From assembly GCA_019638355.1 (NCBI GenBank), contig JAHBTY010000002.1:1-64000 (forward strand): DNA of 64,000 nucleotides, in the 5' to 3' direction. The notes under the pieces were generated by a model. That model saw only the letters and a list, made by a program, of their open reading frames with translations, was not told the DNA's origin and made no database searches. The stretch comes from Cyclobacteriaceae bacterium. Lineage in GTDB: Bacteria; Bacteroidota; Bacteroidia; Cytophagales; Cyclobacteriaceae. The translations under genes and the position numbers were made by a program. Shown piece after piece: positions 46-4,461 of the stretch (position 1 is the first letter of the stretch; the number at the start of each line of letters is the position of its first letter).

Positions 46-55
46 AACACCAGCG

Positions 56-178
56 CACAACAAAAGCTATAACCAATGGCGGGGTTTAGTGTAAATTCGT
101 AGTTTAGTTTTCAAAATACGTTTGGTGTAGTGGGACAATGACGCGCTTCAAAATCCCGCCACTGGTTATAGCCAAACG
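56..178. repeat. Long attC-like palindromic repeat, copy 1 (3' end displaced by IS110)
   Basis: The arms GCTATAACCAATGGCGGG (66-83) and CCCGCCACTGGTTATAGC (155-172) are complementary except for one position, and flank about 70 nt. The outer 5' box is CACAAC (56-61). The 3' arm continues as CAAACG (173-178) and then stops matching, because the IS110 element starts here. The missing end, TTGTGG, is found at 1493. Joining 178 to 1493 gives GTTGTG, the perfect complement of CACAAC. The architecture matches the copy at 2133-2263, including the A/C mismatch position within AATGGCGG/CCGCCACT, while the outer stems differ and co-vary. Layout and position after an ORF stop resemble integron attC sites, but no integrase is in the window. 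Confidence 0.75.
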
Positions 179-202
179 ATATCTATGATTAAAACTAACG
201 TT

Positions 203-1228
203 TCATAAATTATTTTTCAGGTTCAATTCATAAGGTGTTCCGCGTTTTATAACAGCCACAATCCGGTGTAGTAACTTGTTTCTTACGGCATTAATAACAG
301 ACATTTTATTTTTGCCTTCTTCCACCTTTCGTTTGTAATAGTCGTGTAATTCGGGGTTGTGTTGTACACTGCTTACAGCAGCCATGTGCAAGACTCGTTT
401 AAGCTCTCCATTTGCAAATTGAGATACACCTGTCTTACCTCGTATGGATGTACCGCTTTCGTAGGTAAAGGGTGCTACGCCACTGTAACAAGCAAGTTTT
501 CGGCTATCGGCCAGGCGGTTGAAACCATGTGTGTAAACCAACAACATTGCAGCCAGTACCTTGCCTACGCCCTTTATTGACAACATCAGATCATACTTCT
601 GTTTTAAAGTTTCGTCTTCACCGATGAAAGTGAGGATTTGTTCATCTACTTTATCCAAACTCTTTTCCAACCCGCGAATAGCTTCCCGGTTTATCTTGTC
701 CATTAATTTTGCTGTTGAGGTATCAAATTGTTTTAACTCTTCGGAGCTTGTTCGAATGGTTTGTAATGATTTGAGCAGGCGTCTTCTGTTAGCCTGAAGA
801 TCTTTCAGTTTTTCCAGCGTTAATACACTTATTTGCATGATCTGGGCTTTATCCTAATACAAACGTGCATATCGGGCGATACGCTGGGCATCAATTTTAT
901 CTGACTTTCCTCTTACCAGCCCCTGGCTGCGTTTGATCTGCAGGGAGCTTTCCAGCCAAACGTGTACATCACGGCTGAGCAGGTAGTGTACCAGCAGGCG
1001 TGTATACAAGCCAGTGTGTTCCATACAACAAAGAGTGTGATGGTCGCATTCACATTCCATTTGTTTACACCAGGCTTTGAGGTGTTTGAATCCCGATACG
1101 TTGTTGTGAAACTTGTTCTCCAACAGCTGCCCATCTTGTTGACGGATTAGACAGGCATCTATACTTTCTTTGGATACATCAATACCGAGTATCCAACAGT
1201 ACGGTTGATTTTGGTGATGGTTTTCCAT
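203..1228 (-). pseudogene. IS110-family transposase with in-frame amber codon
   Basis: The 5' part (1228 to 857) encodes the RuvC-like DEDD domain: ILGIDVSKES with the first Asp, CMEHTGLY with the Glu, and KSDKIDAQRIARYA with the last Asp pair. The 3' part (from 838) encodes the Transposase_20/Tnp domain with GVGKVLAAML, YSGVAPFTYESGTS (likely catalytic Ser) and RGKTGVSQFANGELKR. Both parts are in the same reading frame, separated only by TAG at 854-856 in ...ARLY-stop-DKAQIMQI. A single CAG-to-TAG change would explain this. With the stop removed the protein has about 341 residues, typical for the family. It is therefore either a recently inactivated gene or one needing stop readthrough. An internal ATG at 838 could restart only the C-terminal domain. 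Confidence 0.9.
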
Positions 1229-1261
1229 AACTTTTGGTTTAGGTAATTAAACTAAAGTGAG

Positions 1262-1447
1262 CATCGGATCGAAACCTTTATAATAGGCCCGCAGCCTTGA
1301 ATATCTATTTGATCCCCTCTCACAACTTAAATTAGCAGCCGGACTGAATCGTTTGATAAGCCTTCAACCTGGTTGGCGGCATAGTGCTCCGGCTGCTTTT
1401 TTTGTGGATAAGCTGGATAACCGAAGCGGTTACCCACTTACCCACAA
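1262..1447 (-). ncRNA. Predicted IS110 bridge RNA with target and donor loops
   Basis: Read on the minus strand from about 1447. First comes a 5' hairpin (1446-1437 with 1412-1403, inner stem 1435-1428 with 1422-1415), which closes with G-U pairs only on this strand. A second domain is closed by a perfect 10-bp stem (1397-1388 with 1343-1334). Its loop carries TATGCCGCCAAC (1383-1372) and CAAACGAT (1355-1348, identical to plus 173-180), so it is the target-binding loop. A third domain is closed by GGATC/GATCC (1315-1311 with 1270-1266) with an inner AGGC/GCCT stem. Its two strands carry ATAGATAT (1308-1301, complementary to 179-186) and TAAAGGTT (1280-1273, identical to 1487-1494), so it is the donor-binding loop. 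Size, order and location match known IS110/IS621 bridge RNAs. Exact transcript ends are inferred. Confidence 0.8.
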
Positions 1448-1492
1448 AAGTTACGATTACTACGATAAATTATGTTGAAGTAAATCTAAAGG

Positions 1493-1510
1493 TTGTGGCC
1501 CATTGCCCGA
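1493..1510. repeat. Displaced 3' end of attC-like repeat copy 1
   Basis: TTGTGGCCCATTGCC directly follows the IS110 right end. Joined to CAAACG at 173-178 it reads CAAACGTTGTGGCCCATTG, which parallels AAAACGTTAGCGGGCATTG at the end of copy 2 (2248-2266). It also restores pairing with CACAAC at 56-61. About 55 nt of apparently noncoding DNA lies between it and the antitoxin start at 1566. Confidence 0.6.
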
Positions 1511-1565
1511 CCGAAAATGAAAGAGTAAATTTTAGTAACTTAGGACTGAAATAACGCAGTTAAAA

Positions 1566-1754
1566 ATGACAACCAAAGATATAAAATCTGAGATACAGAA
1601 ATCACTTGACAAAGTGCCTGAAAGTGTGCTTCAAGACGTTCTTGACTATTTAAAACAAGTTGAAAATCAACCAATAGAGAAAGTGAACCTCACAAGGAAT
1701 CTAAGGGACATCTTAACTGAAGACAAAGAACTCCTAGAAAGACTTGCTAAATGA
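1566..1754 (+). CDS. Antitoxin-like protein paired with Doc toxin
   Basis: This 62-residue, mostly helical acidic protein starts MTTKDIKSEIQKSLDKVPES and resembles short DUF2281-type antitoxins in length and in its leading helix. Its last codons overlap the following toxin gene by 4 bp (ATGA), the usual arrangement for a translationally coupled antitoxin and toxin. The C-terminal part (NLTRNLRDILTEDKELLERL) would be the toxin-binding segment by analogy. No DNA-binding motif is recognisable with certainty, so the antitoxin call rests on size, overlap and partner. The pair lies between two palindromic repeats, as in cassette-borne toxin-antitoxin modules. Confidence 0.7.
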   Translation: MTTKDIKSEIQKSLDKVPESVLQDVLDYLKQVENQPIEKVNLTRNLRDILTEDKELLERLAK

Positions 1755-2122
1755 TTGACATTAACGAAGTCGAAAAAATACACGACATTCTTATAGACAA
1801 GTTTGGTGGAGCAAAGGGCATTCGAGACAAAGGACTTCTTGAATCATCCATAAATAGACCTTTTCAAACTTTTGACGGACAAGAATTATATCCTAACCCG
1901 GTAGACAAAGCTGCAGCGATTTTTGAAAGCATAATAACAAATCATCCATTCATAGACGGTAACAAGCGGACAGCTTACGTACTCATGAGACTGATGCTTA
2001 AAAATCATAACATCGAAATTAACTTAGGCCAAGACGATAAGTATGACTTTGTTATAAAAGCAGCTAGCGGACAATTAACATTTGACCAAATTAAGACCTG
2101 GATTAATAAGAATTTAAAGTAA
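1751..2122 (+). CDS. doc: Doc-type (Fic family) toxin, death-on-curing protein
   Basis: This 123-residue Fic/Doc protein has the diagnostic motif HPFIDGNKRTA at about residues 65-75 (consensus HxFx[D/N][A/G]NKR), with catalytic His and phosphate-binding Asn-Lys-Arg intact. Doc of phage P1 phosphorylates elongation factor Tu and blocks translation. The short length and the N-terminal INEVEKIHDILIDKFGG helix favour Doc over longer AMPylating Fic proteins. It overlaps the antitoxin gene by 4 bp, and its stop codon is 10 nt from the CACAAC box of the second palindromic repeat. It appears intact and presumably active. Confidence 0.88.
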   Translation: MIDINEVEKIHDILIDKFGGAKGIRDKGLLESSINRPFQTFDGQELYPNPVDKAAAIFESIITNHPFIDGNKRTAYVLMRLMLKNHNIEINLGQDDKYDFVIKAASGQLTFDQIKTWINKNLK

Positions 2123-2132
2123 GGCAACGTGC

Positions 2133-2263
2133 CACAACACCGGGTTTGTTTAATGGCGGGCGACACAGTCGCCCGTAGTGTCAACAAGTTTATTATATTC
2201 GTGTAGGCGGACAAACCCTCCGGATTTATCCGCCACTAAACAAACCCAAAACGTTAGCGGGCA
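2133..2263. repeat. Long attC-like palindromic repeat, copy 2 (intact)
   Basis: The outer arms GGGTTTGTTTAATGGCGG (2142-2159) and CCGCCACTAAACAAACCC (2230-2247) are complementary apart from one A/C position. Nested inside are a perfect hairpin GGGCGAC-ACA-GTCGCCC (2158-2174) and a GGCGGA/TCCGCC pair. The 5' box is CACAAC (2133-2138) and the 3' end is AAAACGTTAGCGGGCA (2248-2263). Compared with copy 1, the outer stem sequence is completely different yet still self-complementary, while the boxes CACAACA, AATGGCGGG, CCGCCACT and AAACGTT are shared. That pattern indicates selection on folded structure. An attC-like recombination site is the best analogy, but a Bacteroidota-specific dispersed repeat is the alternative. 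Confidence 0.75.
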
Positions 2264-2333
2264 TTGTAGAAAGACACATTGCAATCTTTCCTTGAAACTT
2301 TTACCTACCACCGCACCAACCTTTTAACCAACT

Positions 2334-2813
2334 GACATTGATTTTGTTCATGATGGGCTTTTCCAAGGTAAATCCTTCCGTTGTTTTAATGTGCTGGATG
2401 ATTTTAACCGGGAGGTGCTTACCATTAGTATTGATACAAGCCTGACCAGTTTACGGGTAATCCGCGAATTGAATCGATTGCTGGAATGGCGAGGTAAACC
2501 TATGCAGCTTCGGGTAGATAATGGCCCGGAGTTTATTGCACAAGCCATGGAAGATTGGTGTAAGCAACATGGTATTGAACTGGTATTCATTCAAAAAGGC
2601 AAGCCCCATCAGAATGGATATATCGAACGCTTCAACCGTACATTCCGCGATGAAGTATTGGATGTGTTTGTTTTTGAAAACCTAAATCAGGCGAGATTAT
2701 ATGCCAGGGCATGGATGTGGGTCTATAACAATGAACGACCGCACAGTTCGCTTGGCTACTTAACACCTATGCAGTTCCTGTTGAAATATGGAAAACTCCA
2801 CCACCCGCAGTGA
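2334..2813 (+). pseudogene. 5'-truncated IS3-family transposase (OrfB) fragment
   Basis: The reading frame carries the C-terminal two-thirds of an rve integrase core: DIDFVHDGLF (first Asp), LDDFNREVLTISID, LRVDNGPEFIAQAMEDW (second Asp), KGKPHQNGYIERFNRTFRDE (Glu) and NNERPHSSLGYLTP at the end. The N-terminal part and OrfA are missing. An in-frame stop occurs at 2325, and homology begins at about 2334. No start codon or terminal repeats were found. It is a different IS from the intact element at 31808-33154, since the shared motifs are family-level only. A remnant of a dehydrogenase gene follows immediately, suggesting an old insertion that has decayed. Confidence 0.85.
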
Positions 2814-2817
2814 CTAA

Positions 2818-2973
2818 CTGAGGGAAGCTTTCAGTTTAACCGTTCAAATCGCAAGACAATTAAAGAGCGATAATATATTGGTCAACGCTGTTAATCCCAG
2901 ATTTGTGGCAACTGCCGAAGGTATGACAGCAATGGGTGCCAGGCGAGACACCATGTTTGATTTACCTTGCTAA
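2818..2973 (+). pseudogene. C-terminal remnant of a short-chain dehydrogenase (SDR)
   Basis: One frame from 2818 to a TAA at 2971-2973 reads FSLTVQIARQLKSDNILVNA followed by VNPRFVATAEGM. This is the typical region after the SDR active site (…LTVxLAxEL…ILVNAVNPGxVxT), with NPRF in place of the usual NPGF. Upstream, where the YxxxK site and Rossmann fold should be, there is instead the IS3 fragment. It has no start codon and is about 51 codons long. It most likely marks the gene that an ancestral IS disrupted. Confidence 0.65.
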
Positions 2974-2993
2974 ATAACCCGTATTTTTGTTGC

Positions 2994-3461
2994 ATGATTC
3001 AAATTTATACTGATGGCGCGGCACAAGGAAATCCCGGCCCTGGTGGGTATGGTATTATCCTGAAGTTTAACGGCCATGTAAAAGAACTTAGTCAGGGGTA
3101 TCGGCTTACCACCAATAATCGCATGGAATTATTAGCTGTTATTGTGGCATTGGAGGCTATTAAAAAATTTGGCATAAACATTATAGTTTATTCAGATTCA
3201 AAATATGTAATTGATGCTGTTGGAAAAGGTTGGTTGTGGGGTTGGCAAAAAAAGAACTTCGTTAAAAAGGCCAATGCCGATTTATGGCAACGTTACATTC
3301 CGTTACACCATCGCTTCCAGCCCAAATTCACTTGGGTAAAAGGTCATGCCGGACATCCTGAAAATGAGCGTTGCGATCAATTAGCCGTATCAGCCGCCTT
3401 GGGAAGCGACTTACTTATCGATAGCTGGTATGAAGAAAACCGCACAAAAGAAACAGATTGA
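2994..3461 (+). CDS. rnhA: Ribonuclease HI
   Basis: This 155-residue RNase HI cleaves the RNA strand of RNA-DNA hybrids. All four carboxylates are visible: Asp in QIYTDGAAQGNPGPGGYG, Glu in NNRMELLAVIVALEA, Asp in VYSDSKYVIDAV and Asp in HPENERCDQLAVSAA. A catalytic-loop His is present in GHAGHPE. The basic handle region follows DAVGKGWLWGWQ. The ATG at 2994 was chosen because the protein then begins at the first beta-strand. An upstream TTG at 2967 would overlap the dead SDR fragment and adds a non-conserved tail. It stands alone, downstream of transposon debris, and is intact. Confidence 0.95.
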   Translation: MIQIYTDGAAQGNPGPGGYGIILKFNGHVKELSQGYRLTTNNRMELLAVIVALEAIKKFGINIIVYSDSKYVIDAVGKGWLWGWQKKNFVKKANADLWQRYIPLHHRFQPKFTWVKGHAGHPENERCDQLAVSAALGSDLLIDSWYEENRTKETD

Positions 3462-3555
3462 TTGCGAGTTATCAACCATACTAAATTCTAATTACTACCT
3501 TATAAGTCCTTCCATTTCTTAACTTTAAGAATCAGTTTTTGATTGATCCCTATAT

Positions 3556-4461
3556 ATGCCCGAAACCGCCATTCAATTTTCGGAAAGCAGTCTTACAGTG
3601 TTAAACATATGCTTGGGGATAATCATGTTTGGTGTTGCATTAGATGTACGCTGGACACACTTTACTAAATTGGCTTACCAAAAGAAGGCAATTGCTACCG
3701 GTTTAATTTCGCAAATTATTTTACTGCCAATTATTACTATACTTTTGATTTCAGTGTTACCTATTTCACCGGGCATAGCGTTAGGAATGTTGCTGGTGGC
3801 TTGCTGCCCAGGAGGCAATGTGTCGAACTTTTTCACACAACTTACTCGTGGAAATGTGGCTTTGTCCGTAACGCTTACAGCGTTTTCATCGTTGGGTGCA
3901 TTCTTTATCACACCAATTACATTTTTTTTGTGGGGATCAGTCATCCCATCTGTATCAACAGAAATAAAGCTATTAGAACTCGATCTTGCCTCGTTGTTCT
4001 TAAATATGATGGCAATTCTTTTGCTTCCACTCATTTTGGGAATAGGTGTAGCCACCCATTTGCCTTACTTGGCACAAAAAATTGCACAGCCGGTGCGTAT
4101 TGCTTCCATGTTTATGTTAATCGGGTTTATTATAGCGGCTGTGCTAAATAATCAGGATGCATTTGCCGTGCACCTTGGCAAGGTGTTCTGGATTGTATTG
4201 CTTCACAATAGCTTAGCGTTGATTCTCGCCTATTACTTTAGCAAGGTCTTAAAAAATGATGAAGCAGTTAACCGAACGATAGCAATTGAAACCGGCATCC
4301 AAAATTCTGGCCTCGCGTTGGTTTTGATTTTTACATACTTTGAAGGCAACCTACCGATGGCAGTGGTGGCAGCATGGTGGGGCGTGTGGCATCTTATTTC
4401 GGGGTTGGTATTTTCATCCATCATGCGTAAGCGACAAGCAACCCCTGTTATAAAGCTGTGA
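3556..4461 (+). CDS. Bile acid:sodium symporter (SBF/BASS) family transporter
   Basis: This 301-residue polytopic protein has nine to ten hydrophobic segments. Its conserved motifs are MFGVALDVRWTHF near the N-terminus, VACCPGGNVSNFFTQLTRGN in the middle (the Na+-site crossover region) and the late AIETGIQNSGLALVL motif. Bacterial members carry out sodium-coupled uptake of organic anions such as pantoate, bile salts or 2-keto acids. The substrate cannot be read from sequence. The stop overlaps the start of the next gene (GTGA), implying translational coupling with the acyltransferase. Confidence 0.88.
   Translation: MPETAIQFSESSLTVLNICLGIIMFGVALDVRWTHFTKLAYQKKAIATGLISQIILLPIITILLISVLPISPGIALGMLLVACCPGGNVSNFFTQLTRGNVALSVTLTAFSSLGAFFITPITFFLWGSVIPSVSTEIKLLELDLASLFLNMMAILLLPLILGIGVATHLPYLAQKIAQPVRIASMFMLIGFIIAAVLNNQDAFAVHLGKVFWIVLLHNSLALILAYYFSKVLKNDEAVNRTIAIETGIQNSGLALVLIFTYFEGNLPMAVVAAWWGVWHLISGLVFSSIMRKRQATPVIKL

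What the first reader, a model, noticed from the sequence alone, without database searches (positions are those of the whole stretch)
173..1494. IS110 bridge RNA readable from sequence: both donor guides and one target guide match the element's own ends and flank
Seen: on the minus strand at 1447-1262 three stem domains follow each other. The donor loop carries ATAGATAT (1308-1301, complement of 179-186) and TAAAGGTT (1280-1273, identical to 1487-1494). The target loop carries CAAACGAT (1355-1348, identical to 173-180) and TATGCCGCCAAC (1383-1372). The left donor and target matches overlap by exactly two bases (179-180), which would be the core dinucleotide. Known: IS110/IS621 elements use such a two-loop RNA to choose donor and target. 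Inference: this element's RNA and both junctions can be assigned from one copy. The right-hand target guide matches its flank only over GTTG (1492-1495).
Basis: partly seen in the sequence, partly recalled or inferred. Interest (0 to 1): 0.9.

Follow-up and report, generated by a model that had tools for sequence, protein, structure and literature searches.

The report
Guide-RNA jumping gene hits integron sites
A bacterial jumping gene appears to carry an RNA that guides it into the gene-swapping sites (attC) of integron arrays, at the bond that integron enzymes cut; the enzyme found beside such arrays lacks a part thought essential.

Summary
Window 179-1492 (minus strand) is an IS110-type element: DEDD/Tnp20 transposase with one in-frame stop, and an upstream two-loop bridge RNA. 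Relatives support the RNA: covarying stems, and target guides tracking each copy's own flanks (0 of 20,000 permutations).

The target is an attC-type site. The element sits at the G^TT crossover of a site in an integron-like cassette array (in 19 of 21 neighbouring site pairs the cassette's end box matches its own start); 10 of 12 right ends abut an attC-model hit. attC-targeting was known for IS1111-type elements; this is the IS110 type, in Bacteroidota.

Beyond the finding: a tyrosine recombinase family found at the head of such arrays in several genomes lacks the IntI-specific I2 insertion held necessary for cassette capture. That it works on these sites is inferred from position. Nothing here is bench-tested.

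The parts
179..1492 (-). IS110-type element (1314 bp), exchange points 1493|1492 (left end) and 179|178 (right end)
   Evidence: relatives share these ends with different flanks; single copy in own genome
1262..1447 (-). predicted bridge RNA: 5' stem-loop 1447-1402, target loop about 1397-1334, donor loop about 1315-1266
   Evidence: fold; covariation in wider relatives; no Rfam match over it (one hit only, E 0.66, another family at 1590-1742)
1373..1381 (-). left target guide TGCCGCCAA
   Evidence: 9/9 to flank of L033, 5/9 to this copy's own flank
1348..1355 (-). right target guide CAAACG plus handshake AT
   Evidence: pairs with CG+TTTG at 178-173
1301..1308 (-). left donor guide ATAGATAT
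   Evidence: identical to right end 186-179 minus
1273..1280 (-). right donor guide TAAAGG plus handshake TT
   Evidence: pairs with AACCTTTA at 1494-1487 minus; handshake tracks the flank over 24 guide sets, 27/48 vs 14.1 expected, 0 of 20,000
854..1228 (-). transposase, N-terminal DEDD part, ending at an in-frame stop
   Evidence: PF01548 E 6.5e-19; frame open in L032, L033
203..838 (-). transposase, C-terminal part in the same frame, with YESG serine motif
   Evidence: PF02371 E 3.6e-21; motif in the translation
53..178 (+). attC-type site of the upstream cassette, interrupted at its G^TT crossover (distal R' box begins at 1493)
   Evidence: inverted repeat 66-87/151-172; attC model hit 53-186, E 5.3e-21 (this site was not used to build the model)
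1493..2253 (+). gene cassette: begins TTGTGGCC; unassigned small ORF 1566-1754 and Doc/Fic family gene 1751-2122
   Evidence: own R'' box TGCCACAAC matches its start 5 of 6; PF02661, TIGR01550
2130..2262 (+). second, uninterrupted attC-type site; crossover G2253^T2254
   Evidence: inverted repeat 2142-2159/2230-2247; model hit E 2.9e-14 (this site was among the 16 used to build the model)

Best explanation
An IS110-type insertion sequence whose bridge RNA is tuned to integron attC-type sites. The RNA (5' of the transposase gene) binds the transposase; [quoted passage not shown] The exchange happens between A7 and C8, the same phosphodiester that integron integrases cut in the attC bottom strand; the product joins target AA to donor CCTTTAG and donor AT to target CGTTTG, and the RNA carries handshake bases for both products. 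The inserted element separates L' from R' and so should disable that attC for the integrase. Shown: anatomy, ends, guide-flank correspondence, attC context. Inferred: circular intermediate, RNA expression, strand order, loss of attC function. In this copy the transposase has an in-frame stop, so it is probably immobile unless helped in trans.
For: Guides track own flanks in 25 guide sets, 0 of 20,000 permutations. RNA stems covary. Transposase of the intact relative L033: NF033542 'IS110 family RNA-guided transposase' 179.7 bits (cut-off 140), IS621 (8wt6) E 6.7e-30 with its acidic residues and serine motif aligned. Of 12 right ends, 10 overlap an attC-model hit, all in the same register to the junction. 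Cassette rule met by 19 of 21 neighbouring site pairs; shuffles at most 10 of 21. Guide retuning: the Chryseotalea copy (L036) has RTG CCAGCG and 5 of 6 attCs beside its genome's recombinase (L155) end CCCAGCG; the window, L032, L033, L043 copies have CAAACG and sit in sites ending CAAACG. [quoted passage not shown]
Against: This copy's own left flank fits the LTG only 5 of 9; so does that of L137. L034 has RTG CAAACG but its flank reads CGGTTTG, and L035 CGTTTATG, so the right guide is not perfect in every close relative. LTG fits 5 or fewer of 9 in 8 of 25 guide sets (L001, L038, L041, L044, L055, L057, L081, L130). Only 3 of 24 uninterrupted R boxes fit the textbook GTTRRRY (recalled). Other attC spacers occur in the Chryseotalea genome too (L036, L095: AAACG, AGACG). 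No RNA, circle or movement has been observed.
Confidence: 0.88

Rival explanations
1. The target repeats are not attC but a dispersed REP-like palindrome family; the element is just another REP-targeting IS110.
For: At least one wider relative sits in another palindrome (L062 flanks make an inverted repeat around CG, read); the R box is mostly not GTTRRRY; the adjoining recombinase is not a canonical IntI.
Against: Sites lie in tandem (L161, L155), facing one way, between ORFs of which 12 of 14 of at least 100 codons in L161 read in the same direction (one of the two others is the element's transposase); each cassette's R'' matches its own start; R''/R' and L''/L' pair in the model; hits lie downstream of one recombinase family.
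Confidence: 0.08
2. The element is a member of the IS1111-attC group already described.
For: Same target class (passages of PMC11187229).
Against: Long non-coding region is upstream of tnp, bottom-strand guide comes before top-strand guide (IS110 order as stated in PMC11187229); the longest exact inverted match between the first and last 40 bases is 5.
Confidence: 0.03
3. One reading: AT (179-180) is the core dinucleotide.
For: LDG and RTG both include AT.
Against: The left end has AA at that place in 11 of 11 left flanks of the clade and other bases in wider relatives; LTG and RDG carry AA, LDG and RTG carry AT. A core should be common to both ends; only the following C is.
Confidence: 0.03

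Closest known systems
IS621 / IS110 bridge RNA system (PMC11208160, PMC11208158: passages read)
   Same: DEDD + Tnp20 serine recombinase, 5' bridge RNA, two loops, LTG-RTG-LDG-RDG order, handshake bases beside RTG and RDG
   Different: target is an attC-type site rather than REP; donor and target share one core base (C) rather than a CT dinucleotide: left end CC in 26 of 29, right side CG in 28 of 29 parsed copies (the copies were chosen by end motifs that allow some other bases, see Tried and rejected)
IS1111-attC elements ISKpn4, ISPst6, ISPa25 (PMC11187229 passages; Tetu and Holmes 2008, Post and Hall 2009 not read, seen as references only)
   Same: RNA-guided insertion at one end of attC sites
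   Different: those are IS1111 type, with the RNA downstream of tnp and the reverse guide order
Integrons / CALIN arrays (PMC9024848, PMC9668308, PMC2727003: passages read)
   Same: cassettes, attC with R''-L''..L'-R', attI-like site after the recombinase gene in the two genomes where I describe it
   Different: adjoining recombinase lacks the IntI-specific domain; R box mostly not GTTRRRY

Membership tests
IS110 (IS110 type) | DEDD_Tnp_IS110 + Transposase_20 transposase | tested here: met
   both halves in the window; whole protein in L033, NF033542 above cut-off
IS110 (IS110 type) | long non-coding region upstream of tnp with bottom-strand guide first | tested here: met
IS110 (IS110 type) | covarying two-loop bridge RNA whose guides match donor ends and target | tested here: met
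   (covariation counted on wider relatives, not on the window's clade)
IS110 (IS110 type) | core dinucleotide identical at both ends | tested here: not met
   only C8 shared; position 9 mostly C at left, G at right. Described for IS621 and related orthologues, so taken as a variant trait, not an exclusion
IS110 (IS110 type) | circular intermediate and RNA made in the cell | not testable with these tools
   sequence only
IS1111 (attC group) | subterminal inverted repeats of 11-13 bp | tested here: not met
   longest exact inverted match between first and last 40 bases is 5; best 12-mer 9 of 12
IS1111 (attC group) | non-coding RNA region downstream of tnp | tested here: not met
   RNA is upstream
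Integron attC/cassette array (the target) | R''/R' and L''/L' pairing, cassette start complementary to its own R'' | tested here: met
Integron attC/cassette array (the target) | R box GTTRRRY (recalled consensus) | tested here: not met
   3 of 24 uninterrupted sites; GTTR itself was required by the scan
Integron attC/cassette array (the target) | integrase with IntI-specific (I2) domain | tested here: not met
   TIGR02249 186 bits of 265; Arg-to-Arg spacing 92-97 aa in the 23 of 25 proteins that could be measured, against 135 in IntI4
Integron attC/cassette array (the target) | recombinase acts on the attC sites | not testable with these tools
   position only; no association of presence over 78 genomes

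The most novel reading that the evidence does not exclude
Cytophagales-related Bacteroidota carry a large, overlooked class of integrons whose integrase captures attC cassettes without the I2 helix, and IS110 elements have evolved bridge RNAs that parasitise these arrays by hitting the very bond the integrase uses, retuning the right guide to each host's attC spacer.
Probability: 0.5. Interest if true: 0.87.

Novelty: new variant of a known kind. Interest (0 to 1): 0.65.

Why it matters
It gives a naturally reprogrammed bridge-RNA family with its targets readable, shows the handshake pattern in a distant Bacteroidota branch, and shows attC-targeting in IS110-type elements as well as the IS1111 type. 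Following the target led to cassette arrays next to a recombinase without the I2 domain, which PMC7790495 (passages) calls necessary for cassette capture and found in no other protein; if these recombinases work on attC, that view and the detection of integrons by an IntI profile both need revision, and the ancestral-integrase question becomes testable with natural proteins.

Tried and rejected
Rejected: core = AT; IS1111 type (see rivals). Tried: Rfam, nothing relevant. Tried: a short target pattern in the own genome: 41 matches against 81 for the reversed control, so the bare pattern is uninformative; in the window likewise (24 matches, 26.4 expected). A covariance model replaced it. Tried: RNAalifold on 21 bridge RNAs: the two clades misalign in the target stem and only 4 pairs were found; therefore uses 16 of the 21, the five Cytophagales rows (window's clade among them) left out, with a structure that I drew from L050. 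Tried: presence of a P0001-like recombinase against attC hits over 78 family genomes: no association (28 of 43 with, 21 of 35 without; p 0.81), a result against a simple one-to-one link. Follow-up of 12 attC-bearing places in 11 genomes: recombinase found in 4 (G041, G056, G060, G077; in G056 truncated at a contig end); none in 8. In G031, G030 C5 and G024 the contig ends within about 1 kb of the array head, so nothing can be said; in G057 it ends within 5 kb; in G030 C16, G033, G081 and G071 none lies in the 9-18 kb taken upstream, so integrase-free sites exist. Tried: the element in plasmids: no match.

Rows dropped: of 61 end-pairs found by fuzzy pattern 33 were kept by a hand-made list of loci and an end motif ([CT]CT[TC]TAG on the left, except L057; TC[GAT] on the right); a left end beginning CG would have passed the first search but not this motif; none of the 61 begins CG. 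Eight Weeksellaceae pairs with CC on the right were left out. Of the 33, 4 were dropped before the permutation test (L034 no left flank, L066 and L070 loop pattern not found, one duplicate call of L081): 29 rows, 25 distinct guide sets. Before two reverse-strand artefact sites (L155, L161) and one duplicate site were removed; of the two failing pairs, the L161 one (1545 to 4292) skips two sites that the model finds between them (G001:C2:2133 and 2861), the L095 one stays unexplained. The 11 flanks were scored with the clade's LTG; for the partial copies (L087, L135, L136, L137, L139) the copy's own guide is not visible.

Full report
What is there. On the minus strand of window 179-1492 lies an IS110-type element. 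Its transposase gene reads 1228-854 (DEDD_Tnp_IS110, E 6.5e-19), meets an in-frame stop, and continues in the same frame 838-203 (Transposase_20, E 3.6e-21). The frame is open in close relatives (347 codons in L032 and L033), so this copy is broken. It is the only copy found in its genome. Upstream of the gene, 1447-1262 folds into three domains, z -5.34.

Is it a bridge RNA? From relatives of the transposase (80 loci; 7 genomes) I located ends by their shared motifs, left CCTTTAGATT, right CATAGAWATCG. In the 25 distinct guide sets that could be parsed, the left target guide matches the copy's own left flank and the right target guide its own right flank far better than those of other copies (0 of 20,000 permutations); single copies vary, 8 of 25 with a left-guide score of 5 or less of 9. 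Stems covary in 16 wider relatives. The intact relative's transposase matches IS621 over most of its length (E 6.7e-30) with the D, E, D-x-x-D and YESG motifs aligned. The order LTG, RTG, LDG, RDG and the upstream position are those of the IS110 type as described in PMC11187229 (passages).

Where strands exchange. The 11 left flanks of the window's clade that I listed have AA before CCTTTAG, and the right ends AT before CG. In the RNA, LTG and RDG specify AA, LDG and RTG specify AT. PMC11208158 (passages) names such bases beside RTG and RDG handshake guides: they pair with the partner brought in by top-strand exchange. In 24 guide sets the RDG-side pair tracks the left flank (27 of 48, permutation mean 14.1, maximum 25). 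So the exchange lies after AA/AT, before a C common to both ends. The next base differs, C at the left end (26 of 29 copies begin CC) and mostly G on the right (28 of 29 CG, one CT, on copies chosen by end motifs). The uninterrupted attC at 2130-2262 reads AACGTT, and L062's flanks form an inverted repeat only with one CG between them (read by eye), so the target core is CG and the donor has CC. With a two-base stagger one would expect both outcomes at the second base; none of the 61 fuzzy end-pairs begins CG, which suggests a one-base stagger or biased repair. This is inference.

What the target is. The flanks on the plus strand are a hairpin site cut at CAAACG|TTGTGG. A second such site ends the next cassette. 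In relatives they form arrays: of 21 neighbouring site pairs, 19 have the cassette's start repeated in complement in the R'' box at its end with at least 5 of 6 variable bases, against at most 10 of 21 in 10,000 shuffles. A model of 16 sites has the R''/R' and L''/L' stems of attC. At E 0.01 it finds 19 sites in the own genome, 44, 9, 20, 39 and 35 in G001-G005, and 1 each in G006 and G007 (at most 150 candidates scored per genome). Of 12 right ends of the element in six genomes, 10 overlap a listed model hit, each ending eight bases past the junction; one of the others (L095) was found by a looser scan, the last (G004:C6) was not checked, and the hit list was cut. [quoted passage not shown] After insertion the site reads CAAACG-ATATC in place of G^TT, so I expect that attC to be dead for an integrase; this is inferred.

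Guide retuning. The window, L032, L033 and L043 copies have RTG CAAACG and sit in sites ending CAAACG; L035 (flank CGTTTATG) and L034 (CGGTTTG) have the same guide with one or more mismatches. The Chryseotalea copy L036 has CCAGCG, and 5 of the 6 attCs beside that genome's recombinase end CCCAGCG, though other contigs of it have other ends. The LTG TGCCGCCAA must fit the R box of whichever cassette follows: 5 to 9 of 9 in 11 left flanks, invariant only at AA.

The recombinase. In the own genome the best match to the integron-integrase model lies at the end of contig C6 (409980-411092, contig length 411910), with GCTTATAGCCAAACG^TTATC just after its stop codon; the window is the start of contig C2, with its attCs facing the fitting way, so C6 to C2 may be one array (inference). 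In the Chryseotalea genome a relative is followed by an attI-like CACAAACG^TTGG, five uninterrupted attC sites and a sixth holding the element's right end. The own protein scores 186 bits on TIGR02249 (cut-off 265) and 211 on an archaeal XerA model named 'site-specific tyrosine recombinase/integron integrase' (cut-off 220). Between the two catalytic arginines it has 92 residues; IntI4 has 135, XerD 99 (counted on the alignments); the 23 of 25 proteins that could be measured have 92-97. Twenty regions around relatives (20 of the 52 hits listed, the best ones, own genome and Chryseotalea left out) give 24 attC hits: 22 downstream on the recombinase's strand, in 7 regions, 2 upstream, in one region, though more upstream sequence was held (143 kb against 81 kb); 10 of 20 genes end within 1 kb of a contig end on the downstream side, 0 of 20 on the upstream side. 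Over 78 genomes of the family, 49 have attC hits at 1e-5, 43 a P0001-like gene at 1e-60, and 1 an integron integrase over the TIGR02249 cut-off. Against: presence of gene and sites is not associated over those genomes (p 0.81), and 4 of 12 followed-up places have sites with no recombinase in the 9-18 kb upstream. That the recombinase acts on these sites is therefore an inference from position.

What is in print. Ten searches of the held library listed no paper that I could recognise, from titles, abstract starts or the passages read, as describing an IS110-type element in attC or an integron integrase without I2; most subscription papers, including the two on IS1111-attC, are not held. Integrons in Bacteroidota as such are known: PMC9668308 (passages) lists the phylum among those with integrons, and PMC9024848 (passages) names a complete one in Salinibacter ruber M1. 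[quoted passage not shown]

Verdict. The element is a member of the IS110 family with a target class that I did not find reported for the IS110 type, and a one-base core variant. The larger surprise is its habitat.

Noticed in passing
G000:C6:409980-411092 (L112 1228-2340), L155, L192-L211, L224-L226: A XerA-like tyrosine recombinase family without the IntI-specific domain lies upstream of attC-type arrays in several genomes of the family; possible I2-less integrons.
   Followed up: partly
window 1493-2253: The cassette after the element carries a Doc/Fic family gene (TIGR01550) preceded by a small ORF with no family match, perhaps its antitoxin: a possible toxin-antitoxin cassette.
   Followed up: no
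window 2391-2813: Integrase-core (rve) fragment, probably the remnant of another IS, next to the end of the cassette array.
   Followed up: no
L053, L057, L058, L062, L064, L065, L082 (mostly Mucilaginibacter and relatives): Wider relatives of the element carry other guides, such as TTGTCATT with ..CGA or AACTTA with CGAAGT; L062 sits in a palindrome. A ready set of naturally reprogrammed bridge RNAs.
   Followed up: partly
L073-L080: Eight copies in one Weeksellaceae chromosome with right flanks sharing CTGCCGC after AATCC and then diverging; the second core base on the right is C, not G. Their left end was not located.
   Followed up: no
L037, L038, L041, L130: Rhodocytophaga-type copies have left guides with GCGCTAA in three of four, which would fit a GTTAGCGC R box; they may target attC of their hosts, but the attC model found only one hit each in G006 and G007.
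   Followed up: no
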